Shown piece by piece: positions 8,561 through 61,728 of a DNA stretch of 64,000 nt. This DNA is from Vibrio pelagius (GTDB lineage: Bacteria; Pseudomonadota; Gammaproteobacteria; Enterobacterales; Vibrionaceae). The stretch lies in assembly GCF_024347575.1 (NCBI RefSeq), contig NZ_AP025504.1:248001-312000 (forward strand). Reading direction: 5' to 3'. Within the stretch, counting starts at the first letter, position 1, and each line of letters starts with the position of its first letter. The notes beneath the pieces are model-generated. The model saw nothing but the letters and a program-made list of their open reading frames with translations. It ran no database searches and was not told the DNA's origin. Position numbers and translations under genes: made by a program.

Positions 8561-8577
8561 CGGCAAACTCCCTTACA

Positions 8578-38334: not shown

Positions 38335-38345
38335 CAGGAGTCTCT

Positions 38346-38678
38346 ATGCTAGATTTTGACGCTTTAAACGCCTATTTAGATAATGATCAAGACGTAATTT
38401 TCGCCGTTCTATCGACTTATCAAGAAGACCATGCAAATTCTCTCGAGGAAATTAAAGACCTTGTCGCACAACAAGATTGGGGCAAATTACACTTTACTGT
38501 TCATACTTTGAAAGGGATATTGGTGAGCTTTGGCGAAGAGACTGCAACCTCCGCTTTAGAAAACGTAGAACAAAATGCGCTCAAAGACTTAGCACCATCC
38601 GATGAGGATCTAGCGGTTATTTACAGTGAAGTGAAAGTCATTAACCAACAGATCGAAGAAGTTCTCGCTAGTTATTGA
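38346..38678 (+). CDS. Stand-alone Hpt phosphotransfer protein
   Basis: A 110-residue four-helix protein with the phosphorylatable His53 in VHTLKGILVSFG, the canonical Hpt motif. It passes phosphoryl groups between a hybrid kinase and a response regulator. It starts 12 bases after the REC-TPR gene with GACAGGAG before the ATG, so both are one operon and likely partners in a phosphorelay with a distant hybrid kinase. Confidence 0.92.
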   Translation: MLDFDALNAYLDNDQDVIFAVLSTYQEDHANSLEEIKDLVAQQDWGKLHFTVHTLKGILVSFGEETATSALENVEQNALKDLAPSDEDLAVIYSEVKVINQQIEEVLASY

Positions 38679-41482: not shown

Positions 41483-42772
41483 TTATGCTGGTGCACTTGC
41501 TCTGGCATTCAAGGATTTAGCACTAGAAATCCAATGTTGTACCGACTGAGGAGACATTATTTTCGGGTTGCCTAAATCGCTATCTCTTGCTGAAGCGAGC
41601 TCGGGAGGAAGCACATCAATGAGCAGTTCGAGATCTTTATGTGAATTGATTTCTCGCGTGAACACATCCGCCATCTCTTCACTGTAAGAGCCCCCTCTTG
41701 CTTTCGCGGCCTTTACTAATCCATCCAGCAATACATACCACGTGGTCATCGGCCCTTGAACCACTGACGCCGACTCTGCAGCTGAATCAATGAATGCAAA
41801 TGGCACAGTTACAATCGGTTGGTTGAACTCCATTGCAGCGAAGATCCAATCCGTATCAAATGAGAAGTCAAACACTGTCGGGTTTTCAAGAATTTTCTGT
41901 AAGATATCTCTACCATATAATTTGAATGCCGCTTGCGTATCCTTAATACCACTATCAAAAATCTGCGCACCTATCATACGCTGCATATGACGTAACGTCT
42001 TAATACCAACACCCCATCGCTCTTCTTGTTTCACTAAAATGGAGTCAGGATGTTTGCGGTTACCCAATACGACTTGCTTTCCATCACGGCTATATGGAGC
42101 GAGAGCTAAACCTATTTGCCCCAAATGGACAGAGTTATCGGCATCGGTATAAAGAACAGCATCAACACCATCTTCCAAGGACTGCTCACAGCCAAGAATA
42201 ATCGCTCCACCCTTTCTAGAGTCGTCTGCACTCGCTAAATTGCGAAGAGCACCAGATGCCACAGGTAGTGCATCCTCCAGTTTAAGTACTTTGATCTTAG
42301 CTCGAATACCTGCGTCGTAGGTTTGTTTAATAGAACGAGCAATTTCCGCACTTCCATGTGGACACCCGTCGTCAACCGCATACAGTGTCCAATCAACATT
42401 AGTGCCGTTCGTTACCCATTGAAGTTGCTCCACTTTCGTTCTGAGTGAATCTTCGCCGTGCAGATTATCTGCCGACTTGGGATTCAAGCGATTGTGCTCT
42501 CCCCACATCGCGAATACCACGCCAATTTTAATCGGCTGACAAATTGACTGTGTTTCTCTGCGTGATTCGACAAGCTTCACCGCCAACTTGAATTCGAGTG
42601 GCGCATTAAACTGAATTGAAAGGTCTTTGAGGTCTTGGTTTGAGAGTTTATCTAGCTGTAGTAAACGGTCTGCTAGCCTGAGTAAGCTTTGTTGATGTTG
42701 TGGCTCAGTCAAATCAAACTTTTCATTCGATTTATTTAAGAGCTCAATAGCGGTAGACAAAGAAGTATCCAT
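41483..42772 (-). CDS. Soluble GT2-type glycosyltransferase
   Basis: A 429-residue protein without membrane helices. After about 85 N-terminal helical residues comes a GT-A fold domain: GVVFAMWGEHNR (strand 1), VDDGCPHGSAEIA (about 135-147), the metal-binding YTDADNSVHLGQI (about 206-218), VVLGNRKHPDS and DTQAAFKLYGRDIL, the last resembling the DTQCGFKLF motif of dolichyl-phosphate glucose/mannose synthases. It would transfer a sugar to a carrier or acceptor. It is the last gene of the 11-gene operon and is 79 bases from the GH16 gene; AGGGAATATGT precedes the ATG. Confidence 0.8.
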   Translation of the reverse strand: MDTSLSTAIELLNKSNEKFDLTEPQHQQSLLRLADRLLQLDKLSNQDLKDLSIQFNAPLEFKLAVKLVESRRETQSICQPIKIGVVFAMWGEHNRLNPKSADNLHGEDSLRTKVEQLQWVTNGTNVDWTLYAVDDGCPHGSAEIARSIKQTYDAGIRAKIKVLKLEDALPVASGALRNLASADDSRKGGAIILGCEQSLEDGVDAVLYTDADNSVHLGQIGLALAPYSRDGKQVVLGNRKHPDSILVKQEERWGVGIKTLRHMQRMIGAQIFDSGIKDTQAAFKLYGRDILQKILENPTVFDFSFDTDWIFAAMEFNQPIVTVPFAFIDSAAESASVVQGPMTTWYVLLDGLVKAAKARGGSYSEEMADVFTREINSHKDLELLIDVLPPELASARDSDLGNPKIMSPQSVQHWISSAKSLNARASAPA

Positions 42773-42851
42773 ACATATTCCCTAGCGTGACGTTATTGTG
42801 ATCACTTAAAGCTTAGTATGCTAATCTTTTCATATCAAAGTGATGGTAGCT

Positions 42852-43643
42852 TTATTTTGTTTTGCACCTCTCATTTTCCTTGAAACTAAAATTCCGGTAT
42901 TTTGCACGATACTGTCTGACTTTATTTTCACGGAATTTACCCGCCCAGTTACTAATCTCCGGATCTGTTGCCCAGATATTAGCCATCACTCTAAGATAGG
43001 AACTTTCTATGCTTGGGGTTGGGTCGTAGGGATTGTTATTAACACGAAGTACTAACTGCCCGTCTACAAACCACTCAATCCGATCTTCTCCCCAGTAAAT
43101 GCCATAACGATGAAAAGCCTTAGAAGCGTCAAAACCAAGGAAAATCAGGGTTTCGTGTGAGTTGGTATAATCATCGTCGTCTGTCCAAAAGTTCAACTGA
43201 ACCATGTTGGTATTAGACCCTAAAAACTCAATATCGATCTCGTTATGTCGGCCACTACCACCTTCCGGTTTATCATAAGGCCCCGAGAACAAGAAAAATG
43301 AGCTGACCACACCGGGAGCTCGAGCAGGCTTCATATCGATCTCAAAGCATCCGTAAGGAAAAAATTCATGGCTGCGAAACTCCCCACCGTAGAAGCGCAA
43401 CTCACCCTCTTCGTCTTGCTTCCCATCTGGAGCTAGATCCAAGGTTAAACCCTTTTTATTGAACGTAGCCGACTTAGCTTCCCAACGACTTAAGAACGGG
43501 AAACCGTTCTCCCAACCATCCGATAACCACCAACGGCTTTCATCAAAGGTTCGCAAGGGATCATCGAAGCTTTCCGCACTGACAAACGAGCTTGTCAAAG
43601 CCAGTGATACAGCTAAAGCACAATAGGTTTTGGGTGGCACCAT
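42852..43643 (-). CDS. Secreted GH16 beta-glucanase, lichenase type
   Basis: A 263-residue exported enzyme (signal peptide about 1-23, ending SFVSA). The active-site motif EIDIEF spans residues 135-140; Glu135 is the expected nucleophile and Glu139 the acid/base. Neighbouring stretches GGEFRSHEFFPYGCFEIDMK and LGFDASKAFHRYGIYW closely resemble Bacillus licheninase and ExoK-type enzymes, and the motif lacks the extra residue of laminarinases and agarases. Predicted to cut beta-1,3-1,4- or related glucans. Within a polysaccharide operon it probably trims, releases or sets the length of the product. Confidence 0.9.
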   Translation of the reverse strand: MVPPKTYCALAVSLALTSSFVSAESFDDPLRTFDESRWWLSDGWENGFPFLSRWEAKSATFNKKGLTLDLAPDGKQDEEGELRFYGGEFRSHEFFPYGCFEIDMKPARAPGVVSSFFLFSGPYDKPEGGSGRHNEIDIEFLGSNTNMVQLNFWTDDDDYTNSHETLIFLGFDASKAFHRYGIYWGEDRIEWFVDGQLVLRVNNNPYDPTPSIESSYLRVMANIWATDPEISNWAGKFRENKVRQYRAKYRNFSFKENERCKTK

Positions 43644-43712
43644 GACTCGCTCACTTATTCATTTGTATTCATAATGTAAGCCTAATACATACGATGGATT
43701 TTTCACCTCTAA

Positions 43713-44900
43713 TTACTGATTATCTTCTACTGGAGCGAAACTGCGCCTTTGAATAGCTTGAACCGCCGGGACTGGTGCCGCCTGCCCTATATTCCCCTTT
43801 GGGATCGCATTCACAGACGGTGTAGTGAGCTCAAGGTTTTGTTGCGTAGTCGTGTCTGCGTTTGTTGTTGCTTGCTGTTCTGAAGTAGAAGGCAACCCTG
43901 ATGTATGAGATATACTTGTCTCAATAATCGGTTCTGCTGTACCAAGAGGTGTAAAAACTGCGACGCCTTCTTCACTTGAAGTTGTACCATCTTTATTCTC
44001 GGCAGCTGGTATCGTAGCTTCATGAGGTGTTTTTGATAACCTAGATACGCCTTGTTGAACTTGTTGCTGCGCAGGCGGTTGAGACGAAACAGGCGTAATT
44101 GGTGAATGGAAACTGCCTTTGGTCGAGCTTACCTTTCCCCCACTGAATTGTTGCTGTGTCGTTCCTGCTGTGCCTTGCACCGATCCTTTTGGCGTCACCA
44201 TTTGGCCAGTTAAGTCTTGTTGTTGAGTAACATTTTGGCTGGAAGTAGAGGTTTCTGTAGGTTCGACAATAAATGTCTGTTTGCTTGCGAAATCCTTATC
44301 GAGCATTAGTTTACTGTTAGGTGTGTATTGTTTGAGTTGTTCACCAGACGGTTTCAACGCGCTTTCCGTCGGTATTGGGTTGGCTGGTTGCTTACGAATC
44401 AGACCAGCTGAAGGGGATTCGTATCTAAAAAAGTCGAGTTTTTGATCCCAAATATCAATCAACGAAGAGAATTGAATCCATGCATCATCCGCGTAAGCAG
44501 AGGGGCCACCGGAGTTTGTTGCGATAGAAAAGCGAGCGTCAAACGCTTTATAATCGACCTGTAACTGCTGACGATATACACCCCACTTACTTCCTCCCAT
44601 CAAAAAATATCTAACACTATTGGACCAATACTCATAAGCGACAGGATCTTCTACTTTTTCAGCCGCCATTGCCGCAAGTGCATCCGCTAGACCTGCAGTT
44701 TGCCACATCTCTTGTGTTCCGATCTTATGTTCGAGACTGAGAGCCCGATTCGCTTGTTGATGCATTAGACTAGCGGCTTGCGTATATCGGCCTTGGGATA
44801 GAAGAAGCGTTGGAGTGCTCAATAAGTCTATGGATGTTTGACTCAGCGCCCAAACAGGAAAGGAAGCAGCAAACAAGATAAGTACAATTAAGCTTCTCAT
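43713..44900 (-). CDS. Exported protein with Gln/Thr/Ser-rich C-terminal half
   Basis: A 395-residue protein started at the ATG at 44900, which overlaps the stop of the upstream DUF3131 gene (ATGA) and follows GGAGAC. A signal peptide (about 1-19, ending VWALS) precedes a helical domain to about residue 160 (TQAASLMHQQANRALSLEHK, DAFDARF-type helices, possibly TPR-like). The rest is low-complexity, rich in Gln, Thr, Ser and Pro, and probably disordered. No family recognised. Its position between DUF3131 and GH16 genes suggests a periplasmic or cell-surface partner of polysaccharide export. Confidence 0.75.
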   Translation of the reverse strand: MRSLIVLILFAASFPVWALSQTSIDLLSTPTLLLSQGRYTQAASLMHQQANRALSLEHKIGTQEMWQTAGLADALAAMAAEKVEDPVAYEYWSNSVRYFLMGGSKWGVYRQQLQVDYKAFDARFSIATNSGGPSAYADDAWIQFSSLIDIWDQKLDFFRYESPSAGLIRKQPANPIPTESALKPSGEQLKQYTPNSKLMLDKDFASKQTFIVEPTETSTSSQNVTQQQDLTGQMVTPKGSVQGTAGTTQQQFSGGKVSSTKGSFHSPITPVSSQPPAQQQVQQGVSRLSKTPHEATIPAAENKDGTTSSEEGVAVFTPLGTAEPIIETSISHTSGLPSTSEQQATTNADTTTQQNLELTTPSVNAIPKGNIGQAAPVPAVQAIQRRSFAPVEDNQ

Positions 44901-46279
44901 CGGAATGTCTCCACCATACATTTTCCGGGATGATCAAAACGGGAGTTAAACTTAACGTCGCGGTACTCTTTTGACTTATTGGCTTTGTAAAGCTTACCAC
45001 TCTGCTTGTACAACAGAGCCTCAAGCACGCCTGCATTGGTCTTCAAACTGATGCTTTTTTCATAAGCACTGGTAAGTTCATAACGACCTTCATACCACCC
45101 TCTCTGCGGATCATACAGCTCTTTTACTAGCGTCATTAGTCGGTCGGTATAATCGGTCTTCCATAGAGCCCACATTTGAAAAGCAACACGCGTTGACACT
45201 AGCGCTTTCTCATCATGTGAAGAACCATCTTCGGCCAGTGTTATCCAAGGCGTACCCAAGCCATATATCGCATCGTAAACGAAATAAGGTTCACCAGTAA
45301 CAACATGCTCTCCACGCGCAGTGTAAATTCGCTCGTTATCCCAACGTGCCTCTTGCACTTGATAGATGGCGTCTGCCATTGCTGCTAGCGTGTTATTGGT
45401 ATGTTTTGAGTCACTTGACGTCGTGTCCCCGACTTTATCCCAGTTGAACTCAAGCCCCATCCACAAATAGGGTGTTGAGTAAATTGGACGTAAAACATTA
45501 AATACCCGCGGATCACGACCGTCAAAAATAAGATCGATATCGTAAATCGTCGCTACATCGTAGGGCTCTATGTTCATCGCTTTTTCAGGCACGATCTGCC
45601 AGTCCAAATAACCGTAAGATGTGTACTCTTCTAGCCCCAAGCGCCCCTCTTTATATCGAATCAATTGGCCGTCCTGAATCATGCTCCCATAAAGCTCTCC
45701 ATCAAGGCTAATCAACTCACAAAAGTTCCAACGCAATACTGCCTTATCGACGTATTCGGAGAATTCAGGAGAGTGTCTCTTTACAATGGCGAGTGCGATT
45801 AGAAGACGGCCAACATCGAGTGATGACCAACCAATATCTTGTGGCTGGTTGCCATAGTTAACCATGCCACCACTTTGCGTGCTGTACACCTTATTAGGTG
45901 CGAGGCCGTAGCTAAGCTCCATCTTGTTAAGAAAACTCAGAACCAAAGTTAGACGCTCGTCATACTCTTTGTTTGAGATGAATTCAAACTCTCTCGCAGC
46001 AATCAACGAGATAAGATAATCCGCCAAACCTGCCATATTCGTGGTAGGAAAGTTATCAATACTATTCACTAAACCCGTCGTAACTTGGGTATTGTTATCG
46101 ATATACTTCCACGCCGTTTGCGCCCACATCAGTTCTTCTTCAGTCAACGACGCATGACGACCTTGTCGAAATACCTGTGATTGGCTAAACGAATCAACAC
46201 CGTTGGTCACACCTTGGTAAACCACACCGCAGCCAGATACAGACACCGATAACAGAAGTAAACTCCACTTCTTCAGCAT
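44897..46279 (-). CDS. DUF3131 lipoprotein, paralogue 1
   Basis: A 460-residue protein with a lipoprotein signal (lipobox SVSGC, Cys17). The domain (about 45-440) is DUF3131, an alpha-helical toroid-like domain found with glycan synthases. It opens with LMWAQTAWKYIDNNTQVTTG and LVNSIDNFPTTN, contains GWSSLDVGRLLIAL and YFVYDAIYGLGTPW, and ends with KTNAGVLEALLYKQSGKL. The fold resembles glycoside hydrolases acting on glucans, but no catalytic residues are established. It is one of three tandem paralogues sharing these motifs in the same order. Confidence 0.85.
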   Translation of the reverse strand: MLKKWSLLLLSVSVSGCGVVYQGVTNGVDSFSQSQVFRQGRHASLTEEELMWAQTAWKYIDNNTQVTTGLVNSIDNFPTTNMAGLADYLISLIAAREFEFISNKEYDERLTLVLSFLNKMELSYGLAPNKVYSTQSGGMVNYGNQPQDIGWSSLDVGRLLIALAIVKRHSPEFSEYVDKAVLRWNFCELISLDGELYGSMIQDGQLIRYKEGRLGLEEYTSYGYLDWQIVPEKAMNIEPYDVATIYDIDLIFDGRDPRVFNVLRPIYSTPYLWMGLEFNWDKVGDTTSSDSKHTNNTLAAMADAIYQVQEARWDNERIYTARGEHVVTGEPYFVYDAIYGLGTPWITLAEDGSSHDEKALVSTRVAFQMWALWKTDYTDRLMTLVKELYDPQRGWYEGRYELTSAYEKSISLKTNAGVLEALLYKQSGKLYKANKSKEYRDVKFNSRFDHPGKCMVETFR

Positions 46280-46288
46280 TCAATAACC

Positions 46289-47689
46289 TTATTCTACGGG
46301 TTTGATTTTTTTACGAGGCAAACACTGCCCTTCATAACCGAATGGTGACTCCAATGCTTTCTCCCATAAGCTCGGTGCTAACTGGTCTTTGTATTGAAGT
46401 AATTTTCCCTGTTTTTTATACAACAAGATCTCTAGTGTGATGCCGTTATTATTGGAGGTGAAAGTGTTAATCAGACCAGTCCCATTCTCGAAGATACCTT
46501 CATAGAAACCTTTCTCTCGATCGTAAGCGGTAGAAACATGATCAAACAACAGGTCGGTGTATTCGGTATCCCAGAGAACCCACATCCCCATCGCGCCTTT
46601 AATGGCGACCGCTGCGTACTGAGGCAGATACTCACCCACTTCAGAGATGGTGTTCCATGCAAAACCATCGGTATAAATAGTGTCGTAGACGAAGTAAGGC
46701 GCACCGGCTAATTGGTGCTCCGTCCGCGCGGTAATAATACCGGTTTGCTTGTAACGTTCTTCCTGTACACGATAGATTTGTAGAGCAAACTCAGCCATCC
46801 ATTCATGTGAATATCTGGAATCGTGTGGACTTCGGTCTTCCACCAAGTCCCAGCCCAATTCAATACCATCCAACACATAACTTTCAGTTACAACGTAACT
46901 ATGTGCTTTTAGTTTACGCGGATCACGCGTATCGTAAGGAATGTCATAACCGAAAAGGTTAATCGTGGCGTAAGGTTCGGCCATGGCCGCTTGAGTCGTA
47001 TCAAACCCCCACAATTCAAAGCCTTTGGCTGCATACTCTTCATAACCAAGTCGCCCTTCTTGGAGGTACTGTACCTCTTTTCCAGGTTCAAGTAGCGCGC
47101 CAAACATGGTGCCGTTTTCATCCACCACGTTACAGTAGTTCCACCTTAACATCACCGAGTCGATACTCGTGGCGAATTCAGGGTAACGGTTCTTAAGGAT
47201 ATAAAGCCAAATCATCAAACGACCTAAGTCGAGAGCTGAATACCCAATTTCACCCGGTTGGTTACCGTAGTCCACTTTTGCCGCGGTTTGGGTGTTATAC
47301 GCCTTGTTTGGTAACTCCCCCATGAATAGGTCGAGCGTATTTAAAGTTGTTAGGAAACGAACAAGTCGTCTATCAAACTCTTCTTTTTCAATAATCCCTA
47401 ACTCATACGCACTGGTCATGCCCGCGAGATAGGATGCCGCATCCCACCATGTCACAGATGGATAGTTATTTACCGCATTTACCAAGCCCGTCGACTCTTG
47501 GTAGTTATTTTCAAAATACTTCCAAGCGATACGAGCCATATCCATCTCTTTCTCCGTCAGCTCGCCTTGACGAGGTTTAGGGACAGTCCAGTGTGTATTT
47601 CGGTCAACAATATCATCAGAGAATTGATTGTATTTACTACCGCAACCAACGATTGCAAGAGTGATCAAGCCAAGACTAATCGTTCGCAT
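46289..47689 (-). CDS. DUF3131 lipoprotein, paralogue 2
   Basis: A 466-residue lipoprotein (lipobox AIVGC, Cys16). Motifs match paralogue 1: MARIAWKYFENNYQESTG, LVNAVNNYPSVTWWDAASY, GYSALDLGRLMIWLYIL, APYFVYDTIYTDGFAWN and TSNNNGITLEILLYKKQGKL. Both this and paralogue 1 lie nine bases apart. Two lipid-anchored copies plus a membrane-anchored third suggest a set acting at different envelope layers or on different steps. Exact activity unknown. Confidence 0.85.
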   Translation of the reverse strand: MRTISLGLITLAIVGCGSKYNQFSDDIVDRNTHWTVPKPRQGELTEKEMDMARIAWKYFENNYQESTGLVNAVNNYPSVTWWDAASYLAGMTSAYELGIIEKEEFDRRLVRFLTTLNTLDLFMGELPNKAYNTQTAAKVDYGNQPGEIGYSALDLGRLMIWLYILKNRYPEFATSIDSVMLRWNYCNVVDENGTMFGALLEPGKEVQYLQEGRLGYEEYAAKGFELWGFDTTQAAMAEPYATINLFGYDIPYDTRDPRKLKAHSYVVTESYVLDGIELGWDLVEDRSPHDSRYSHEWMAEFALQIYRVQEERYKQTGIITARTEHQLAGAPYFVYDTIYTDGFAWNTISEVGEYLPQYAAVAIKGAMGMWVLWDTEYTDLLFDHVSTAYDREKGFYEGIFENGTGLINTFTSNNNGITLEILLYKKQGKLLQYKDQLAPSLWEKALESPFGYEGQCLPRKKIKPVE

Positions 47690-47722
47690 ATAAATTCCTT
47701 CTTATTATTTTAATTCGCTGAT

Positions 47723-49045
47723 TTACTTCAACTCACCAATCGTCAATAGCGGCCCATTCTCAATGTATGCCAATGACTCAAGGACGATTCCGTTGGTGTT
47801 TGCTGTCACTGCTTTGTTAGTGCGCCCATCAATTTCATAACGACCTGAGTACCAACCTTTCTCATCCGAATAAAGGTCAGAAGCTTCGTTGATCAGAACA
47901 TCGGTGTAATCTGAATCATAAAGCGCGTACCAACCGAATGCGGCTTTAGTTGAAAGAGTTTTTAGGTGTGATTGGTCTTTACCGTCATCAGAGATGGCAT
48001 TCCATTTTTCACCATCCGAGAATACCGTGTTGTAGACAAAGTATGGCGCCTCATCAACGTTATCCTCACTCACAGCGGTAACAATACCTGTGTCTTCGTA
48101 ACGACGCTCTTGAGCTTGGAAAATACGGTGTGCAAATACCTTTGAAACACTGTCCGCACCAAACTCAATACCATCAAGAATGTAAGATTCACTCACTACA
48201 TAGTTATGGGCGTGGAATTTTGAAGGGTCACGTTTATCTGTCGGAATTTCGATACCATAGATATCAACCATCTCTAGGTAATCGATATATTTCATAGAGT
48301 TAAATACATCACGCCCCATCAAAGCTAATGACTTGGACGCATACTCTTCGTAACCAATACGACCCTCTTGCACTAACTCCATAACGCTTGCATCGGATGT
48401 TGGACGAGCACCGTACATATAACCGTCCACCAGCATTGCACTCACTTTCCAGTGGTTGAGTACGTCATTTACCTGCTTATTAAACTGCGGGTATTGCCAA
48501 ATCATAATGTTCATAGGAACAAGGATTCGACCGATATCGATCGCCGACCAGCCAATGCCGTTTTCAATAGGATTGTTGGCGTAGTCCACCATCTCTAGAG
48601 TTTGCGTGTTGTAAGCCTTATTGGGTAATAGGCCATCAACGAGCGGCAAGCGCGCCAAAGTCGCGAGTGCTTTTTCCATACGCAGCTCAAACTCTTCTGT
48701 TGAAATGATATTGATCTTCTCTGCTGAAATGAGTCCCATTAAATAAGAAGCGGTATCCCACATAGTGGTCGATGGATAACCATCCACTGAATTCACTAAG
48801 CCTGTATTTTCTTGATAGTTGTTCTCAAAATATTGCCAAGCCACACTTGCCCACTCGTACTCCTGCTCGGAGAGTACGCGTGAAGACTTAAATGGAATAT
48901 CTTCTGGAATTTCGAAGGTAATATTTCCGAGTACTCTTCCCGATTCGCGAGTTTCGATGCTGAAAGCAATAATAAGCGCTGTCGCTAAGCCCAAGATGAA
49001 CACAATATGATGGCGAGCGTTAACCATCGATTTTTTAAACCCCAT
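47723..49045 (-). CDS. DUF3131 protein with N-terminal membrane anchor, paralogue 3
   Basis: A 440-residue protein with one N-terminal hydrophobic helix (about 13-30) and no lipobox, so it is probably held in the inner membrane facing the periplasm. DUF3131 motifs are YEWASVAWQYFENNYQENTG, LVNSVDGYPSTTMWDTASY, GWSAIDIGRILVPMNIM, APYFVYNTVFSDGEKWN and TANTNGIVLESLAYIENGPL. It overlaps the GT2 gene by 11 bases with GAGGAG seven bases before the ATG, so it is coupled to the synthase and may be its periplasmic partner. Confidence 0.85.
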   Translation of the reverse strand: MGFKKSMVNARHHIVFILGLATALIIAFSIETRESGRVLGNITFEIPEDIPFKSSRVLSEQEYEWASVAWQYFENNYQENTGLVNSVDGYPSTTMWDTASYLMGLISAEKINIISTEEFELRMEKALATLARLPLVDGLLPNKAYNTQTLEMVDYANNPIENGIGWSAIDIGRILVPMNIMIWQYPQFNKQVNDVLNHWKVSAMLVDGYMYGARPTSDASVMELVQEGRIGYEEYASKSLALMGRDVFNSMKYIDYLEMVDIYGIEIPTDKRDPSKFHAHNYVVSESYILDGIEFGADSVSKVFAHRIFQAQERRYEDTGIVTAVSEDNVDEAPYFVYNTVFSDGEKWNAISDDGKDQSHLKTLSTKAAFGWYALYDSDYTDVLINEASDLYSDEKGWYSGRYEIDGRTNKAVTANTNGIVLESLAYIENGPLLTIGELK

Positions 49046-50891
49046 ACTTCAACTCCTCTGAATTGGCAGTTTCTTCACCTTCGCTTTCAGCTGGTGGTGT
49101 CCAGAATGCTGCTGCGATCATTCCCCACATCGCCAACATGTTATTTAGTATCCAAAATGTATTTAGAACAAGACCGCCCACAGAGTAATCGCCCCATGAA
49201 CCGGTTGAGTGACCAAACCATGCAAACAGCAAGCTAAACAGACTTAATCCGAATACCGCCGCTTGCGGAATGACTAGCTTGAAAAAGTTACCTGTTTGTC
49301 GTTCTTTCGGTGTTGTCGGGAAGCTGATTTTCCGCCCGCGTAGCACTGTCCATAACGCCCGCAAGTTAACCGGGAAGAATGAAAGGAAGTTCGTTTTGCC
49401 TTTATAGCCCGCGACGCCCCAAGTCCCTATCATCATCGCCAACTCAGCAGTGATAACATAAGGTAAGAAGTGCAAATAGAACGTCACGTCATAGGCACTT
49501 ACTGGTGCAATTGAAGTGAGGAAGTAGATAATTGGACACGCTAGGAAAATAATGTTCCAGATAGCCGACAAATTGGACCAAAAACTCGCGCCATACATCA
49601 GCTTCTGTTTGAAGTTGAGCCCTTTGCGGAAAATCGGGTTGTCATTCATAAAGATGTCAATCGACCCACCAGAGTACTTAAATCGTTGTACTGTCCACGT
49701 TTGTAGATCTTGTGGAGAGAGCATTTTACTCTCTACATTAGGGTGCATAACGGAACGCCAGTTACGCTCGCGATCAGAGTGGAGCACGATCGACGTGTAA
49801 AGATCTTCAGATACGTGAAATTTGTAAGGCGTGAATTCCGTATCAAACAAGATTTCATCGCGCAAATTATCCGACACCGACTGGTCGACCTTTTTCTCTT
49901 TGGTTAGACGACGGATCTGCGCCTCGATTTCATCTTGTTCTTTAGTAATCTGTTCTGCATAAGCTCTTAACGCCGCTTCCATGACTGCTTCACGGCGGTG
50001 AATCGACCCTGCGCCACAGCAGAATGATGCGTTTACCCAGTTACGACGGCGTTGAATGACGTCGTAAAACATCTGTGGATCATTTACAAATGGGTCTTCA
50101 CCAAGTGTGACTGGACCATAGAACCTTTCGATACCTGAACCGATAGATTTTGCCCATTTACCCAACTTTCTTTCAAGGAACTTAGGTAAACGCTCGCCTT
50201 CTGGTAGGTCGAAGAACCATTGAGGTGTTTGAACCCAAGCCACTGTTGGATCTCTGAAGTAACCAAGCGTGTTTTCAAGAATGGTTGAGAAAGGACGCGT
50301 ATCAGCATCACAGATGACAACGAAGTCTCCGCTAGTGCGTTCCATCGCGTTTCTTAAATTACCTGCCTTAAAGCCGACATTACCGTCGCGAGTAATGTAG
50401 CCAATGCCCATTTCTTTGGCCATCGCTTCCATTTCAGGTCGTTTACCATCATCAAGAATGAAGATTTTGATGGTGATATCGTGCGGGTAAGTGATTTTCT
50501 GCGCGTCTAATATACTCAGCTTAACCAGTTCGGGCTCTTCATCGTAGCTTGGAAAGAACACGTCAACACTGATAGGTCTGTCTTCTTGAGTGTCTAAGCT
50601 ACACTCTGAAATCTTGTATGGTGGCGCTTTCTTTGGTTCATCCTCGACTTTCCACAAGTTATAAGTGAACAGCATCGAACCAATAAAGGCACAAGATTCT
50701 GCAAATGCCAAAGGCAACGAAAACCACAAAGCGTCGTAGTTAAGGGCATACATCCAGCGCCAACCTAAATACCAAATGCCAAGTGTTAAGTTACATGTTG
50801 CCAAATACTGATATAGAAGTTCTCTGGGAATACTATGTGGCACAGGCTCTGGTGGTACTCTGTGCTCAAACTTCTCAAAATAATTATCCAT
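49035..50891 (-). CDS. Membrane GT2 polysaccharide synthase, cellulose-synthase-like
   Basis: A 618-residue inner-membrane protein. Two N-terminal helices (about 28-50 and 55-79) precede a GT2 catalytic domain with VFFPSYDEEP (about 111-120), ILDDGKRPE (Asp147-148), CDADTRPF (Asp195, Asp197), TPQWFF (222-227), FCCGAGSIHRR (290-300) and SEDLYTS (361-367). A charged insert (about 310-350) separates the last two. The expected QxxRW appears as QRFKY (402-406). Several C-terminal helices follow (about 430-600). No PilZ domain. It probably polymerises and exports a glucan using NDP-glucose. Confidence 0.9.
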   Translation of the reverse strand: MDNYFEKFEHRVPPEPVPHSIPRELLYQYLATCNLTLGIWYLGWRWMYALNYDALWFSLPLAFAESCAFIGSMLFTYNLWKVEDEPKKAPPYKISECSLDTQEDRPISVDVFFPSYDEEPELVKLSILDAQKITYPHDITIKIFILDDGKRPEMEAMAKEMGIGYITRDGNVGFKAGNLRNAMERTSGDFVVICDADTRPFSTILENTLGYFRDPTVAWVQTPQWFFDLPEGERLPKFLERKLGKWAKSIGSGIERFYGPVTLGEDPFVNDPQMFYDVIQRRRNWVNASFCCGAGSIHRREAVMEAALRAYAEQITKEQDEIEAQIRRLTKEKKVDQSVSDNLRDEILFDTEFTPYKFHVSEDLYTSIVLHSDRERNWRSVMHPNVESKMLSPQDLQTWTVQRFKYSGGSIDIFMNDNPIFRKGLNFKQKLMYGASFWSNLSAIWNIIFLACPIIYFLTSIAPVSAYDVTFYLHFLPYVITAELAMMIGTWGVAGYKGKTNFLSFFPVNLRALWTVLRGRKISFPTTPKERQTGNFFKLVIPQAAVFGLSLFSLLFAWFGHSTGSWGDYSVGGLVLNTFWILNNMLAMWGMIAAAFWTPPAESEGEETANSEELKYGV

Positions 50892-50941
50892 TTATTCCTT
50901 TCCCTATTTTATTGACCTAGCCAGCTCTTATTTGACTTTTA

Positions 50942-51424
50942 TTAGGGGGGAGACACATTCTCTATGAGGTCACTTTCCTCTAGCTCTTTGGTCATCATGA
51001 AGCAGTTTTCTCCATCTTCTACGCGTAGCTTGACGTCATCCATCAAAGCAGAAACGATCATGAATCCTCTTCCGGATGTTGTCCAAGTCGTGTCGTCATC
51101 CGGGTCCATATCAACAAACTCATTGGACAGTGCCTTTTCCAGTTGCGTTTGTGTCATAGACTCACCTCTATCGATGATGTCGATACAGATGGTCTTTGTT
51201 TCTGAGTCTTCATTGAGATTGCACTTTACTTTGACAGGCTTGCCTTCTTGTTCGCTATACGCATGTATGTAAGTGTTGTTCACCATCTCAACCACACACA
51301 ACTCCAGTTGAGTGGCCAACACGGGAGAAATGCCTATACCAGACCAATAATCGTTGAGTTCTATTGCGACTTGACGTGAAGTCTCTAAAGAGCTTTTGTA
51401 CGCTTGTTCGAATACGTCTAACAT
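50942..51424 (-). CDS. RsbW-like anti-sigma/serine kinase
   Basis: A 160-residue HATPase_c_2 protein started at the ATG at 51424, seven bases after GAGGAG. The N box is ELCVVEMVNNTYIHAY (about 42-57), G1 is IDIIDRGESM and G2 is TTSGRGFMIVSAL (about 119-131), so ATP binding is intact. In partner-switch modules this protein phosphorylates the STAS antagonist and holds a target protein; the STAS and phosphatase partners are encoded two and three genes upstream. Confidence 0.9.
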   Translation of the reverse strand: MLDVFEQAYKSSLETSRQVAIELNDYWSGIGISPVLATQLELCVVEMVNNTYIHAYSEQEGKPVKVKCNLNEDSETKTICIDIIDRGESMTQTQLEKALSNEFVDMDPDDDTTWTTSGRGFMIVSALMDDVKLRVEDGENCFMMTKELEESDLIENVSPP

Positions 51425-51439
51425 CGGCACACTCCTCTG

Positions 51440-52564
51440 CTACATACCATTCAACATGTCTGATACACGATTGTGCGCAGCATGAGAACGAAGATTGCAC
51501 CAGTCCAAGTCATGATTCTGCACACCATCATGACCAATGCAGTACTGACCAAAAATGGTTTGATGCTTTATATGACAATTTTCCTTGATATGGATGTTGT
51601 CGAAGATAAGTGACTCTTCGACCACTGCTTTTTCATCCAACTGACAATTAGCCCCAATAAGCGCAGGACCGATCACTTTGGCATTCGGATCGACTTTGCA
51701 TCCGCTACCTATTACAACGGGAGGCTGAAGATTACAGTTATTCAGGTCAACAACCGTATTGATCCCGACCCACACCCCAGCTTTAACTTGAGTTCCTGGA
51801 ATGCGGTAGCCCGGTACTTTGCCTTCTAATATATCTTTGGTCACACTCCAGATATCGGTGATATTACCTACGTCAAGCCACTGGAAGTTCATTTCAACCG
51901 CGTAAAACGGGACGTGCTTCTCCACCAACATTGGGAACAACTCACTACCAATGTCGTATTCGCCCTCTTTCGGAATGTAGTCAAAGATCGCAGGCTCAAA
52001 GATGTAGATACCTGTGTTGATTTGCGTAGAGAGTGCTTCTTCTTTTGATGGTTTTTCTTGGAAACTAGTGACCAGCCCTTTTTCGTCCGCAACGACAACG
52101 CCGTATTTTTCAACGTCATCTAGAATGACACTTTTGGTAATAATAGTAGCGATGCCGCCATTCTTTTTATGCTTACGTACGGCTTCTGTCAGATCCAAAT
52201 CAATCCAAGCATCACCACAAACCACCACAAAAGTTTCATCAAAGAAGCCTGAAAACTGTTGAATTTTCTGCATCCCACCAGCAGAACCGAGCGCTTTGCT
52301 TTGATACTTACCATCAACGCATTCGCCCTCATAAGAGTAAGAGAGCTGAACGTCGAAATGATGCCCATCGCCGAAATACCCTTCGATCACTTCAGCTAAG
52401 TGACTAGTGTTAATCACAATCTTATTGATATTGTGTTGCGAAAAGAGCTCAATCATCGATTCCATTACCGGCTTACCCAGAATTGGGATCATTGGCTTAG
52501 GCAGCGATTGAGTGATTGGCTTCACTCGTGTACCTTTCCCTGCCGCTAAGATCATTCCCTTCAT
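51440..52564 (-). CDS. Sugar-phosphate nucleotidyltransferase with left-handed beta-helix
   Basis: A 374-residue cytoplasmic enzyme. The N-terminal pyrophosphorylase domain carries LAAGKGTRVKPITQSLPKP (about 5-23) and the metal-binding CGDAW-type motif (VVCGDAWIDLD, about 110-120). The C-terminal part (about 255-350) is a hexapeptide-repeat helix (VIGSGCKVDPNAKVIGPALIGANCQLDEKAVV). It makes a nucleotide sugar such as GDP-mannose or UDP-/dTDP-glucose; the base cannot be told from sequence. It lies in the midst of the partner-switch genes and supplies donor for the synthase downstream. Confidence 0.87.
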   Translation of the reverse strand: MKGMILAAGKGTRVKPITQSLPKPMIPILGKPVMESMIELFSQHNINKIVINTSHLAEVIEGYFGDGHHFDVQLSYSYEGECVDGKYQSKALGSAGGMQKIQQFSGFFDETFVVVCGDAWIDLDLTEAVRKHKKNGGIATIITKSVILDDVEKYGVVVADEKGLVTSFQEKPSKEEALSTQINTGIYIFEPAIFDYIPKEGEYDIGSELFPMLVEKHVPFYAVEMNFQWLDVGNITDIWSVTKDILEGKVPGYRIPGTQVKAGVWVGINTVVDLNNCNLQPPVVIGSGCKVDPNAKVIGPALIGANCQLDEKAVVEESLIFDNIHIKENCHIKHQTIFGQYCIGHDGVQNHDLDWCNLRSHAAHNRVSDMLNGM

Positions 52565-52575
52565 ATCGATCCCCT

Positions 52576-52908
52576 TTACACAGCGGTTGCGAGTGCTTCA
52601 TCGACACTGGTATAAGTCTTGATCAACCTATCCATACGCGTAAGTTTAAACAGGTCTTGAACTGGCTTTTGAGCGTTAGCAACGGCAATTTTCTTATCGC
52701 GAAGCATCTTGTACACACCCATTACTGCACCCAAGCCACTGCTATCCATAAACTTAACGTTGCTAATATCTAGCACAACGTTTGGTAATAGCTCAGGCGT
52801 AAGTGTCTCCAAAACTTCTCTAAACTGGGGTGCTAATTTGGCGTCAAATCGCTCTTCGTTTACTTGAAGAACTGTGCTGTTGCCTTGTTGACTAATTTCA
52901 TATCGCAT
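52576..52908 (-). CDS. STAS-domain anti-sigma factor antagonist
   Basis: A 110-residue STAS protein started at the ATG at 52908, with AAGGAG eight bases upstream; it overlaps the upstream phosphatase gene by 49 bases. The phosphorylation motif FMDSSGLGAVMG contains Ser56 and Ser57, and DISNVKF before it is the usual beta strand. In the dephosphorylated state such proteins bind the RsbW-like kinase and free its target. The kinase and phosphatase are co-encoded, making a complete switch. Confidence 0.9.
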   Translation of the reverse strand: MRYEISQQGNSTVLQVNEERFDAKLAPQFREVLETLTPELLPNVVLDISNVKFMDSSGLGAVMGVYKMLRDKKIAVANAQKPVQDLFKLTRMDRLIKTYTSVDEALATAV

Positions 52909-54113
52909 TGAGCTTCTCCTTCCTGAGGACCTTTCCATTCCGCAACTAGAACACTGACGTCGTCATCAAAACAATCTGACTTCGTCCAGTCTCTAACACT
53001 GTTTACTAGTAATTCGGTTTGCTGTTGAATCGGGTATTGATTCAGTTGTTCGATCGCATTACGCAAGCCTTCTTCGGAGTATTGCTCGTCTCCGTTATCC
53101 GCTTCTGTAATACCATCCGAGTAAAACCAGATTTTATCGCCTGGTTCGAGTTGAATTTGCGCAGCTTGATATTCGACATCGTCAAAGGCGCCAACAACGA
53201 AGTTATCGTGACCAATCAGTTCTGCATTTCCTTGATTGCCGTGACACCATACCAAAGGTGGATGACCTGCACAGCAGTACGACATTAGACCTGTCTTAAC
53301 ATTGAGCACGGCATAAATCATTGTGAAATAAAGGATATTGGCATCACTACTCATGTACATTTCATTGAGTTTAGAAACCACATCTGCAGGCGCACACACG
53401 GTTGATGTATCGCCATCGTTTTTCAGAACCACAGAAGAGCTACCATTCTGAACGGATAAGCTGGTTTGCACCGAGAAAGACATTAGTGCCGAAGAGACGC
53501 CATGACCGGCAACGTCAAACAGGTAGAAAGCAACGTGATCGGTGTCTAGCTGCATGTAGCCCAACATATCACCACCCACTTGAGCACTTGGGAGCGAGAT
53601 GTAGCTCAACTCTACACAGCTAAAATGTTTTGTTTTGGGTAAGATTTGACGAATGAGTTCACTTGCGGAGTCAAGGTCTCGCTTAATCGTTTCGTACGCT
53701 TGATCCAATTTAGTGTTTTTATCAACGACCTCGTTATGAAGTGCTAGAGTGCGAAACCCAGCGCGAATACGCGCGTCAAGTTCGTCGATTGAAGTTTTCT
53801 TATCAATGAAACCATCGGCACCTGCGTCAATGCCACTGATAATGGACGCTTCATCACCTTTAGAAGAGAGAAGAACAAAGAAGATGTAGCGATGGTAGTT
53901 TTTGGATTTAAGCTCGTTGCAAAGATCTACCCCGCTCATTCCTGGCATCATCCAGTCGCTAAGTACAAATTGAATGTCGGCGTTATCTGCTAACATCTGC
54001 AACGCTATCTCACCGCTAGTTGCAGTATGTATCTGATAACCGCGCTTTTTTAAAACCGAACTCATATAAACCAGGATGGTTCGGTTATCATCAACAAGCA
54101 GAATATCCTTCAT
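52860..54113 (-). CDS. Response regulator with PP2C (SpoIIE/RsbU-type) phosphatase
   Basis: A 417-residue protein started at the ATG at 54113, which has AGGG eight bases upstream; a frame with ten more codons exists. The receiver domain (about 1-120) has ILLVDDNRT, phosphoacceptor in FVLSDWMMPGMSG, and KKTS. A short coiled linker (about 120-155) leads to the SpoIIE phosphatase domain with SLPSAQVGGDMLGYM (about 178-192), LFDVAGHGVSSALMS, FYSDGITEA and DCFDDDVSVLVAEW, which hold the metal-binding Asp residues. Phosphorylation of the receiver would control dephosphorylation of the STAS protein. First gene of the 11-gene operon; divergent from the barrel gene. Confidence 0.9.
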   Translation of the reverse strand: MKDILLVDDNRTILVYMSSVLKKRGYQIHTATSGEIALQMLADNADIQFVLSDWMMPGMSGVDLCNELKSKNYHRYIFFVLLSSKGDEASIISGIDAGADGFIDKKTSIDELDARIRAGFRTLALHNEVVDKNTKLDQAYETIKRDLDSASELIRQILPKTKHFSCVELSYISLPSAQVGGDMLGYMQLDTDHVAFYLFDVAGHGVSSALMSFSVQTSLSVQNGSSSVVLKNDGDTSTVCAPADVVSKLNEMYMSSDANILYFTMIYAVLNVKTGLMSYCCAGHPPLVWCHGNQGNAELIGHDNFVVGAFDDVEYQAAQIQLEPGDKIWFYSDGITEADNGDEQYSEEGLRNAIEQLNQYPIQQQTELLVNSVRDWTKSDCFDDDVSVLVAEWKGPQEGEAQCDMKLVNKATAQFFK

Positions 54114-54303
54114 TCTTTTCCCTAAGTCTTTCTGACGTTTCAATCACACTTCTGCCAATTTTATCTTTGGCTTTTGTTAACGTGCTTTATTACTTTAGGT
54201 TAGACTCAACTCATTGCTTTGCAAATTGTTTCTTATATTTTTGTTGTACTTAAGTTAACGTTGTGCGGTATGTAACACAATTACACGGAGTGAATTGTTA
54301 ATA

Positions 54304-55302
54304 ATGACAGTAATTATTCAGCGCAGAATACTTATCGCTATCGCTCTATTGCCAAATAGCACATGGGCAGACAGCTTTCTGGCAAATACCGCTCCCCATG
54401 CGCCTCCCCCACAAGAGCGTGCGACGCTTTCAAGTAGCAGCAATAACCTCTCTGCATCTAAAGGACCAACCGATGATGAGATAGACGAGATTTGGAAAGG
54501 CGTATCCAGTTCATTCACCTTCCCTTTTCAAGAGTGGGAAGACAGAGAACTGTTTGATGGGTTAAGTGGCAATGTGGGTTATCACCAACCATTGGCTGAA
54601 ACCGAATCAGCGAACATTCCAGCGGGCAGTACTCAAGGACCTACCAATCTCAATCAGACGTTAACTCTCTCCTTAAAATACGCGATTGCCGGCGCTTGGT
54701 TTGTCTCTGGTACGGTTTATCACTACTTAGATAGTGACCAACAGCAGGCATGGAACCCAGATTTTACCTACGTATTCGGATACAGCGATTGGCGACCTTA
54801 TACTCTGAGCTTGGTCTATTCGAACTACGGCGGGAACCGATTTAATCCCGACCCTGGGCAGAATCGGACGGAATTCAAACAGGGCACTTGGTCGCTTGGT
54901 TGGAAATTCCCTATCAAGTCACCTTTCGTCGATCTGTTCAGGTTTACTGACGATGGAGCCATAGGCTGTCAAATTGACTATAACTTTACGCCTGAGTATT
55001 TCAATCTTGCGACAACCGAATACAAAAACAACCATCAAACCTTGAGCCTAGGTTGTAAATATTCGATTTGGGGGAACTGGTATGTCAATGGTACGGCGTT
55101 TTACTATTTTGACAAACAGCAACAACAGCCTTGGAACCCAGACTACACCTACGGTTTTGGTTACTTTGACTGGCGACCGGGCACCTTCACTTTGCAATAT
55201 AACAATTATTCTGGGAATCGATGGAACTCTTCTGACAGAGGTGAAGGGACAGGACGCTTCAAAGATGGCTCAATCACCCTAGCATACAGTTTCGCTTTCT
55301 AA
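54304..55302 (+). CDS. Outer-membrane beta-barrel protein with internal duplication
   Basis: A 332-residue exported protein started at the ATG at 54304 (a TTG at 54295 is closer to GGAG and cannot be excluded). A signal peptide ends near STWADS. The mature chain has a flexible start and alternating hydrophobic strands, ending with the aromatic YSFAF typical of barrels. Two homologous halves are visible: about 120-184 (LSLKYAIAGAWFVSGT, WNPDFTYVFGYSDWRP) and about 245-309 (LSLGCKYSIWGNWYVNGT, WNPDYTYGFGYFDWRP). It is not a family I can name. It lies between the partner-switch operon and the RTX gene, so it may be a polysaccharide or protein exit channel. Confidence 0.8.
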   Translation: MTVIIQRRILIAIALLPNSTWADSFLANTAPHAPPPQERATLSSSSNNLSASKGPTDDEIDEIWKGVSSSFTFPFQEWEDRELFDGLSGNVGYHQPLAETESANIPAGSTQGPTNLNQTLTLSLKYAIAGAWFVSGTVYHYLDSDQQQAWNPDFTYVFGYSDWRPYTLSLVYSNYGGNRFNPDPGQNRTEFKQGTWSLGWKFPIKSPFVDLFRFTDDGAIGCQIDYNFTPEYFNLATTEYKNNHQTLSLGCKYSIWGNWYVNGTAFYYFDKQQQQPWNPDYTYGFGYFDWRPGTFTLQYNNYSGNRWNSSDRGEGTGRFKDGSITLAYSFAF

Positions 55303-61473: not shown

Positions 61474-61728
61474 TCAAATCACCTGTTTGTAACACTTTTG
61501 CTCACACTTAGGACAGATATAGGATTGACGATCAATCCGCTGAGAACAGTGCGGACATATTCCCTGCTTTCGATCACTGCTCATCAATAACAGAATCAAA
61601 CCAATTGGGCCTAATACATAGCCTAAAAGCACACCAGCTACTAAGTTGTTCTTTTTGAATCCAACGTACGTGCTCAATATAAAAAAGCATAAATAGAAGC
61701 CCAGCCAAAACACCATTGATTCGTGCAT
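61474..61728 (-). CDS. Small membrane protein with double-CXXC zinc ribbon
   Basis: An 84-residue protein with two membrane helices (about 7-22 and 28-48) and a cytoplasmic tail holding CPHCSQR and CPKCEQK, four Cys that form a zinc ribbon. Its start overlaps the HlyD stop by one base, so it is co-translated with the adaptor. Similar short zinc-ribbon membrane proteins occur widely, but I know of no role in type I secretion. It could help assemble or regulate the transporter. Confidence 0.8.
   Translation of the reverse strand: MHESMVFWLGFYLCFFILSTYVGFKKNNLVAGVLLGYVLGPIGLILLLMSSDRKQGICPHCSQRIDRQSYICPKCEQKCYKQVI

What the first reader, a model, noticed from the sequence alone, without database searches (positions are those of the whole stretch)
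41483..54113. Eleven-gene operon joining a partner-switch module to a beta-glucan-like synthesis set
Seen: co-oriented genes with overlaps or short gaps for REC-PP2C, STAS, nucleotidyltransferase, RsbW-like kinase, membrane GT2, three DUF3131 proteins, an exported Gln-rich protein, a lichenase-type GH16 and a soluble GT2. Known: partner switches release a target when the STAS protein is dephosphorylated; SypE/SypA do this for biofilm in V. fischeri. Inference: the switch here controls the operon's polymer, since no sigma factor is in the block, possibly by acting directly on the synthase or on transcription. The combination of a three-protein switch interleaved with sugar donor and synthase genes is unfamiliar to me.
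Basis: partly seen in the sequence, partly recalled or inferred. Interest (0 to 1): 0.82.

Follow-up and report, generated by a model that had tools for sequence, protein, structure and literature searches.

The report
Phospho-switch built into glucan-synthesis operon
A marine Vibrio carries a widespread but uncharacterised sugar-polymer operon whose on/off protein switch appears to act directly on the enzymes that make the polymer, because in some relatives without the nearby switch enzymes the same protein is found fused to the enzyme that makes the sugar donor.

Summary
The eleven genes are real, co-oriented and tightly packed. They belong to a conserved locus around a BcsA-like synthase (GT2M) without PilZ; 63 of 66 named loci with at least 9 kb upstream held also carry REC-PP2C, STAS and RsbW-type kinase. 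In print I found it only as genes: the rpoQ operon and island GI-VSA4 of Aliivibrio salmonicida (by gene order) and Klebsiella "block 3b".

Verdict: new variant of a known kind. The STAS target is inferred; the polymer is unknown, probably a beta-glucan.

The parts
52860..54113 (-). REC-PP2C (SpoIIE-type) phosphatase, response-regulator controlled; ORF extends to a TTG at 54143
52576..52938 (-). STAS protein (anti-anti-sigma type), proposed output of the switch; phosphosite motif MDSSG
52741..52743 (-). codon of the proposed phosphoserine: Ser66 of the ORF, Ser56 if translation starts at the inner Met
   Evidence: computed from the ORF; alignment
51440..52564 (-). Sugar-1-phosphate nucleotidyltransferase with hexapeptide repeats; best PDB match UTP-glucose-1-phosphate uridylyltransferase 8x7s (E 9.8e-123)
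50942..51430 (-). RsbW/SpoIIAB-type serine kinase (HATPase_c_2); the only short, high-scoring one in this genome
49035..50891 (-). GT2M: BcsA-like membrane synthase without PilZ
49815..49943 (-). 43-residue insertion (residues 317-359) just before the SED motif of GT2M; candidate docking site (inference)
49305..49322 (-). gating-loop-like motif FPTTPK (residues 524-529)
47723..49045 (-). DUF3131 protein a, N-terminal membrane anchor; GH189/GH144-like fold
46289..47689 (-). DUF3131 protein b, lipoprotein-like N-terminus (lipobox read by eye)
44897..46279 (-). DUF3131 protein c, lipoprotein-like N-terminus (lipobox read by eye)
43713..44921 (-). Exported Gln-rich protein, no Pfam family; recurs at this place in related loci
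42852..43643 (-). GH16 beta-glucanase-like, EIDIEF motif; lineage-specific accessory
41483..42772 (-). Soluble GT2 glycosyltransferase; no solved relative by phmmer
54295..55302 (+). Divergent exported beta-barrel-like protein, candidate outer-membrane exporter (inference); no Pfam family

Best explanation
This is a secreted beta-glucan operon with its own post-translational switch. A signal phosphorylates or dephosphorylates REC-PP2C; the RsbW-type kinase phosphorylates STAS on its serine and PP2C removes the phosphate (family knowledge). Dephosphorylated STAS is the output: it binds the operon's nucleotidyltransferase (probably a UDP-glucose pyrophosphorylase) and/or the cytoplasmic face of GT2M, so that donor supply and polymerisation turn on together. 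This takes the place of the c-di-GMP/PilZ control of ordinary BcsA. The chain enters the periplasm, is trimmed or transglycosylated by the DUF3131 proteins and a lineage-specific hydrolase (GH16 here, GH2/GH9 elsewhere), and leaves through the outer membrane. Shown: gene content, conservation, fold, fusion and phosphosite pattern. Inferred: STAS contacts, activation and polymer identity.
For: Three-gene switch in 63 of 66 loci with at least 9 kb upstream. In 398 phylum genomes 15 have GT2M at E<=1e-60, this one included; of the other 14 loci STAS is in 12, PP2C in 6, kinase in 5. STAS-NTP fusions in 7 of 19 Rhodobacteraceae-type loci, with no kinase or PP2C hit in the held 20 kb; 9 of 19 with full switch and no fusion. 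Phosphoserine in 88 of 89 STAS rows where kinase and PP2C are present, 0 of 7 in fused loci, 0 of 71 fused proteins, with 11 different residues at the site and the preceding Asp lost in 71 of 71. The site corresponds to Ser56 of the SypA-like protein in L015, the residue reported as phosphorylated in SypA. NTP best PDB hit is UTP-glucose-1-phosphate uridylyltransferase. No PilZ in the window GT2M; FxVTxK-like motif in 75 of 79 relatives. Only short high-scoring RsbW-type kinase in this genome. DUF3131 fold.
Against: No biochemistry; complexes could not be modelled. The fusion family may have one origin, so members are not independent. In fusions the next residue is often Ser (45 of 71), so a shifted phosphosite is not excluded; only 47 of the 71 carry a precomputed Pfam STAS domain (my count), and of four fusions scanned three pass a STAS cut-off, the L125 query itself falling just short. 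STAS-only loci are mixed: L119, L121 Ala; L122, L123 Ser without the Asp; L120 intact DSTG although its genome shows no short kinase among the listed hits; several contigs are short. Genomes of five of seven fusion loci have one unlinked RsbW-type kinase (G067, G464, G401, G597, G412; G135 and G427 show none among the listed hits). NTP is found in 50 of the 66 loci, so it cannot be the only target. Aliivibrio loci hold a sigma factor and a GGDEF-EAL protein and L089 a PilZ protein beside GT2M. Two loci have PP2C alone (L118, L135).
Confidence: 0.55

Rival explanations
1. Classical partner switch: the kinase is an anti-sigma factor and the switch controls transcription (RpoQ in Aliivibrio, an unlinked regulator elsewhere).
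For: A sigma-70 gene lies 1.7 kb upstream of GT2M in both Aliivibrio loci; A. salmonicida rpoQ is described as one operon with VSAL_II0320-II0325 (PMC6499059 passage). This genome has RpoQ-like pieces on another contig.
Against: An RpoQ relative was found in 2 of 114 loci (one query). STAS remains with GT2M or NTP, mostly without its phosphoserine, where kinase and PP2C are not nearby; a pure anti-anti-sigma role would not predict that.
Confidence: 0.15
2. The kinase, not STAS, is the effector: free kinase binds and inhibits GT2M or NTP, and dephospho-STAS titrates it away.
For: The textbook direction of RsbV/RsbW systems (recalled); the kinase gene lies directly upstream of GT2M in this window.
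Against: STAS persists with the synthase or fused to NTP where no kinase is nearby, which titration does not predict; STAS is more constant than kinase in the phylum sample (12 versus 5 of 14). Unlinked kinases exist in some of those genomes.
Confidence: 0.15
3. As in S. meliloti, the switch acts on a diguanylate cyclase and c-di-GMP turns on the synthase.
For: BgrU/V/W-BgrR precedent (passage in PMC7647112); GGDEF-EAL relatives in 5 of 114 loci and a PilZ protein beside GT2M in L089.
Against: The window GT2M has no PilZ domain; no relative of that GGDEF-EAL query in the other 109 loci (one query). S. meliloti megaplasmid GT2 hits listed (query: GT2M of L070) are about 27% identical.
Confidence: 0.12
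4. The STAS domain of the fusions is a spare structural domain; loss of Ser shows only drift and the fusion says nothing about the target.
For: Fused STAS domains score low and are divergent, some with no score from my STAS model; a single fusion origin is possible.
Against: An N-terminal extension of this size is retained in 71 listed proteins (47 with a Pfam STAS call), and separate STAS and NTP genes are adjacent in Vibrionaceae and Shewanella loci.
Confidence: 0.15

Closest known systems
Sinorhizobium meliloti Bgr partner switch / BgsA mixed-linkage beta-glucan (Baena 2019; not read, passages citing it seen in PMC7647112 and PMC8546604)
   Same: Phosphatase, kinase and STAS protein control a beta-glucan made by a GT2.
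   Different: The target there is a diguanylate cyclase; here no cyclase is in the block. That the Bgr and Bgs genes are unlinked is recalled, not checked.
Vibrio fischeri SypE/SypA (PMC4517449, PMC8256260 passages)
   Same: STAS is active when unphosphorylated, its Ser56 is controlled by kinase/phosphatase, and it promotes polysaccharide/biofilm.
   Different: One bifunctional SypE versus separate kinase and PP2C; SypA target unknown; syp is a different polysaccharide locus. Aliivibrio locus L015 has a SypA-like STAS gene about 8 kb from GT2M.
Aliivibrio salmonicida rpoQ operon VSAL_II0319-II0325 and island GI-VSA4 (PMC6499059, PMC6420764, PMC2627896 passages)
   Same: By gene order and product names the same locus: glycosyl transferase, membrane protein, two lipoproteins, exported protein, anti-sigma F antagonist II0328, response regulator II0329.
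   Different: In the passages read, only expression and annotation; mapping inferred from L015/L022, not from A. salmonicida sequence.
Klebsiella pneumoniae block 3b (PMC12974863 passages)
   Same: Cellulose synthase, three DUF3131, OpgC, hybrid kinase, anti-sigma factor and antagonist.
   Different: A population-genetics block; function not studied in the passages read; sequence not compared.
Bacterial cellulose synthase BcsA
   Same: GT2 core, membrane helices, FxVTxK-like gating loop.
   Different: No PilZ, QRFKY instead of QxxRW, extra insertion; far below the CelA cut-off (204 versus 699 bits).
[quoted passage not shown]
   Same: DUF3131 fold; N-terminal-half sequence similarity to GH189.
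   Different: Free-standing, probably periplasmic proteins beside a BcsA-like synthase; activity unknown.

Membership tests
RsbU/RsbV/RsbW-type partner switch | PP2C phosphatase, STAS with phosphorylatable Ser and HATPase kinase encoded together | tested here: met
RsbU/RsbV/RsbW-type partner switch | client is a sigma factor | tested here: inconclusive
   no sigma gene in this block; RpoQ relative in 2 of 114 loci by one query; an unlinked client cannot be excluded
BcsA (CelA equivalog) | score over the curated cut-off | tested here: not met
   204 versus 699 bits
BcsA (CelA equivalog) | C-terminal PilZ domain | tested here: not met
   no PilZ in Pfam scan; alignment to BcsA ends near the GT2M C-terminus
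BcsA (CelA equivalog) | QxxRW acceptor motif | tested here: not met
   QRFKY; Q402, R403, K405 and Y406 invariant in 16
BcsA (CelA equivalog) | FxVTxK gating-loop motif | tested here: met
   relaxed pattern F-x-[VTIA]-T-x-K in 75 of 79 full-length GT2M
GH189/GH144 group (SGL clan) for DUF3131 | (alpha/alpha)6 fold most like clan members | tested here: met
GH189/GH144 group (SGL clan) for DUF3131 | sequence relationship | tested here: met
   profile hit to 8wy1 E 5e-6, short N-terminal stretch; profile-profile probability 95.5 to 12 CGS-type proteins but only 33 to a GH144-type set, and no significant match for the later half alone
GH189/GH144 group (SGL clan) for DUF3131 | conserved general acid and nucleophile | tested here: inconclusive
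   E227, E294, E327 nearly invariant in 224; mapping to E1356/E1442 not resolved
GH189/GH144 group (SGL clan) for DUF3131 | activity on beta-1,2-glucan | not testable with these tools
   needs enzyme assay
GH16 lichenase | lichenase-like sequence with EIDIEF active-site motif | tested here: met
   best PDB hits are 1,3-1,4-beta-glucanases; motif in the window protein and relatives
GH16 lichenase | NCBIfam BglS equivalog cut-off | tested here: not met
   196.5 versus 300 bits
S. meliloti Bgr-type system | diguanylate cyclase as target | tested here: inconclusive
   none in the block; GGDEF-EAL relative in 5 of 114 loci by one query; unlinked cyclases not tested
Syp system | syp polysaccharide genes and bifunctional SypE | tested here: not met
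   separate PP2C and kinase, BcsA-like synthase

The most novel reading that the evidence does not exclude
The dephosphorylated STAS protein is a regulatory subunit that physically couples a UDP-glucose pyrophosphorylase to a PilZ-less BcsA-type synthase. A serine phospho-switch would then gate both donor supply and chain growth, in place of c-di-GMP, and the STAS-NTP fusions are its permanently switched-on form.
Probability: 0.35. Interest if true: 0.85.

Novelty: new variant of a known kind. Interest (0 to 1): 0.62.

Why it matters
Several STAS outputs of non-sigma partner switches, SypA among them, have no known target (PMC8256260, PMC4517449 passages). Here comparative data point to a concrete one, the sugar-nucleotide enzyme and the synthase, testable with purified proteins. 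The locus is spread over Vibrionaceae, Shewanella, enterobacterial plasmids, Rhodobacteraceae and other groups; by gene-order mapping it responds to quorum-sensing signals in A. salmonicida; its polymer is unknown. The DUF3131 assignment gives a family of unknown function a likely enzymatic role.

Tried and rejected
Single-sequence AlphaFold of DUF3131a gave pLDDT 31 and was discarded; the 36-row alignment gave 91.7. Mapping the catalytic acids of GH189 onto DUF3131 by profile alignment failed in the C-terminal half, and a GH144-type profile matched at only 33% probability, so no catalytic residue is claimed. The thought that GT2M is S. meliloti BgsA was dropped: S. meliloti megaplasmid hits listed (query GT2M of L070, rows sampled) are about 27% identical; which of them is BgsA was not checked. 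NC_003078 has no annotation in the plasmid collection, so the bgr genes could not be read. Thiothrix sheath polymer as the product: no paper found. A BcsS relationship of the beta-barrel protein: the L089 BcsS query hit only its own locus. The fold comparison covers Foldseek's 1000 best chains only. Literature searches for this combination found no characterised system: within the held open-access library only.

Caveats on counts. The 80 named loci are the best 80 of 378, so they lean towards V. fortis-like synthases; 14 with under 9 kb upstream were dropped for the 63-of-66 count. The 66 include L028/L031 and L038/L039, which share the GT2M core sequence. The 114 loci (80 + L087-L089 + L113-L143) include four genomes drawn twice by shared GT2M core and contig length (L043/L113, L013/L115, L057/L127, L086/L128). 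GH2, GH9, OpgC, RpoQ, GGDEF-EAL, PilZ and BcsS were each sought with one query. Counting distinct STAS sequences, Ser is kept in 82 of 83 full-switch rows; the odd row is a second STAS hit in L074. The 89 rows include the SypA-like STAS of L015. A strict N-box pattern matched only 45 of 75 kinases, so the pattern was too narrow or the box varies; 71 of 72 PP2C show DxxGHG.
Full report
WHAT IS THERE. The window lies in a Vibrio fortis-like genome (GT2M is 98% identical to a V. fortis protein; window at G000:C2:248001-312000). On the minus strand, in order of transcription, are REC-PP2C, STAS, a nucleotidyltransferase (NTP), an RsbW-type kinase, a membrane GT2 (GT2M), three DUF3131 proteins, a Gln-rich exported protein, GH16 and a soluble GT2. 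A beta-barrel-like protein is encoded divergently at 54295-55302; relatives occur in 52 of 80 related loci, often at one end of the cluster.

CONSERVATION. A profile of GT2M (A1) brought in 80 named loci, the best of 378. Iterated HMMs made from the window proteins gave the gene order: PP2C, STAS, NTP, kinase, GT2M, DUF3131 recurs in Vibrio, Photobacterium and Shewanella, with variants in Ferrimonas, Leucothrix, Thiothrix, Desulfoluna and alphaproteobacteria. Of 66 loci with at least 9 kb upstream of GT2M, PP2C is found in 65, STAS in 65, short kinase in 64, all three in 63, NTP in 50 and DUF3131 in 66; 14 loci were set aside for short flanks. The exceptions are L056 (no kinase hit), L067 (no PP2C hit) and L083 (no STAS or kinase hit). 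Annotated plasmids of Pantoea, Paracoccus and Sphingobium show the same set in other arrangements; the Sphingobium stretch has no annotated DUF3131 but keeps GT2M with kinase, STAS and phosphatase, and has a PilZ protein next to GT2M.

ACCESSORY ENZYMES. GH16 was found in 22 of 114 loci and GH2 and/or GH9 in 38; none has both. The GH2 of L016 is nearest to beta-mannosidases and the GH9 of L017 to endoglucanases among solved structures. GH16 here is nearest to 1,3-1,4-beta-glucanases, with EIDIEF. OpgC-like acyltransferases occur in 10 of 114 loci. The NTP's best solved relative is a UTP-glucose-1-phosphate uridylyltransferase (E 9.8e-123). A glucan made from UDP-glucose is therefore likely; its linkage is unknown.

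THE SYNTHASE. GT2M aligns with BcsA over the GT2 core and membrane helices up to residue 593 of 618, and carries a 43-residue insertion before SED; Pfam finds no PilZ. The invariant residues include DDG, DAD, SED, QRxKY and F524-T527-K529. A gating-loop-like motif is in 75 of 79 full-length relatives. It scores far below the CelA cut-off. So it works like BcsA but is not a member of that equivalog, and the c-di-GMP domain that opens the gate in BcsA is missing.

WHAT THE SWITCH ACTS ON. A sample of 398 genomes of the phylum gave 15 with GT2M at E<=1e-60, this one included. I fetched the other 14. STAS-like sequence is present in 12, PP2C in 6, kinase in 5; L118 has PP2C only and L124 is a 3.2-kb contig with none. 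In family f19 a STAS gene stands directly before GT2M (L119, L121, L122, L123) or further upstream (L120) with no kinase or phosphatase hit on the held contig; most of these contigs are short. In the alphaproteobacterial order of G067, 19 of 244 genomes have GT2M, all 19 examined: 9 have PP2C, STAS and kinase; 7 have STAS fused to NTP and neither of the other two nearby; 1 (L138) has a 493-residue NTP without a STAS hit; 2 (L118, L135) have PP2C only. Full switch and fusion never occur together in these 19.

THE PHOSPHOSITE. The window STAS has MDSSG, with Ser66 in the ORF, Ser56 from the inner Met. In the SypA-like protein of L015 the first Ser of DSSG is also residue 56, the residue reported as phosphorylated in SypA (PMC4517449 passages). 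In loci with both kinase and PP2C, 88 of 89 STAS rows (87 loci) have Ser there (82 of 83 distinct sequences); the exception is a second STAS hit in L074. In the 7 fused loci the residue is R, R, R, T, N, F or Y. A database search with one fusion gave 392 hits, 120 listed; 71 of the 120 have an N-terminal extension of at least 95 residues before NTP (47 of them with a precomputed Pfam STAS domain, my count), and none of the 71 has Ser or Thr at the site (R 23, M 11, A 10, Y 7 and others), while the preceding Asp is lost in all 71; the following residue is Ser in 45 of 71, so a shifted site is not strictly excluded. Pfam confirms STAS above cut-off in 3 of 4 fusions scanned, L125 falling just short. 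STAS-only loci are mixed: 2 Ala, 2 Ser without the preceding Asp, 1 intact.

KINASES ELSEWHERE IN THOSE GENOMES. Among the hits listed, G135 and G427 (fusion) and G164 and G052 (STAS only) show no short, high-scoring RsbW-type kinase; G067, G464, G401, G597 and G412 (fusion), G497 (L138), G205 and G513 (PP2C only), and G104 and G168 (STAS only) have an unlinked one. The list was cut at its low end. In this genome the operon's kinase is the only short, high-scoring one (74.8 bits; the next, 29.3 bits, is in a 432-residue frame). Reading: the serine is kept where its kinase and phosphatase are kept beside it, while the STAS domain stays with the donor-making enzyme and the synthase. That makes STAS, in its unphosphorylated form, the likely output, as SypA is, and points to NTP and/or GT2M as its partner. 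The fusions may descend from one event, so these numbers show a pattern, not independent replicates; the variety of residues at the site argues for released constraint.

WHAT IS IN PRINT. 'DUF3131' occurs in three papers of the library. One lists Klebsiella block 3b with cellulose synthase, three DUF3131, OpgC, hybrid kinase, anti-sigma factor and antagonist. In A. salmonicida, VSAL_II0319-II0325 are described as an operon of rpoQ, signalling protein, glycosyl transferase, membrane protein, two lipoproteins and exported protein, lowered in a luxI mutant (PMC6499059). II0321 and II0322 rise about 28-fold and II0328, an anti-sigma F antagonist, about 48-fold at high density (PMC6420764); II0321-II0335 were called island GI-VSA4 (PMC2627896). 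The order and products match Aliivibrio loci L015/L022, so I take them as the same locus; this is inferred from order. Of all papers I saw only search listings and passages. S. meliloti BgrU/V/W controls diguanylate cyclase BgrR (passage in PMC7647112).

CONCLUSION. A genuine, widespread and, as far as these searches show, uncharacterised polysaccharide system with a built-in partner switch: known kind, new variant. The new point is the evidence that STAS is the output and that its partner is the sugar-nucleotide enzyme or the synthase.

Noticed in passing
window 55520-60382: A 1620-residue protein made almost wholly of RTX nonapeptide repeats (50 Pfam stretches), with type I secretion genes nearby (HlyD-type 61728-63041, ABC transporter running past 63991); long ORFs sit at the same place in several related Vibrio loci, one of them (L012) seen to be RTX.
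   Followed up: partly
L005:5776-7209 and 7311-10673 (just past the window's right end): A fourth DUF3131 gene followed by a 1120-residue hybrid histidine kinase; with the Hpt protein at window 38346-38678 this could be the phosphorelay feeding the REC domain of the switch.
   Followed up: partly
window 36763-38678: REC-domain protein followed by an Hpt-domain protein just beyond the operon's distal end; REC-hit ORFs recur at the same place in several related Vibrio loci.
   Followed up: partly
G000:C1:2683778-2684636 (L144, L147): Pieces resembling the RpoQ sigma factor of Aliivibrio (53% and 33% identical) in two separate open frames; they look like a broken or divergent copy. Described only.
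   Followed up: no
L087 (Pantoea stewartii plasmid NZ_CP099541.1): The glucan locus lies about 5 kb from a class 1 integron integrase gene with resistance genes on the same plasmid; related synthase hits also occur on two Salmonella plasmids.
   Followed up: no
L119-L124 (family f19): The synthase with one or two DUF3131 proteins (and, where the contig reaches, an OMP-like protein) in small genomes; in five of the six a STAS gene without linked kinase stands upstream.
   Followed up: partly
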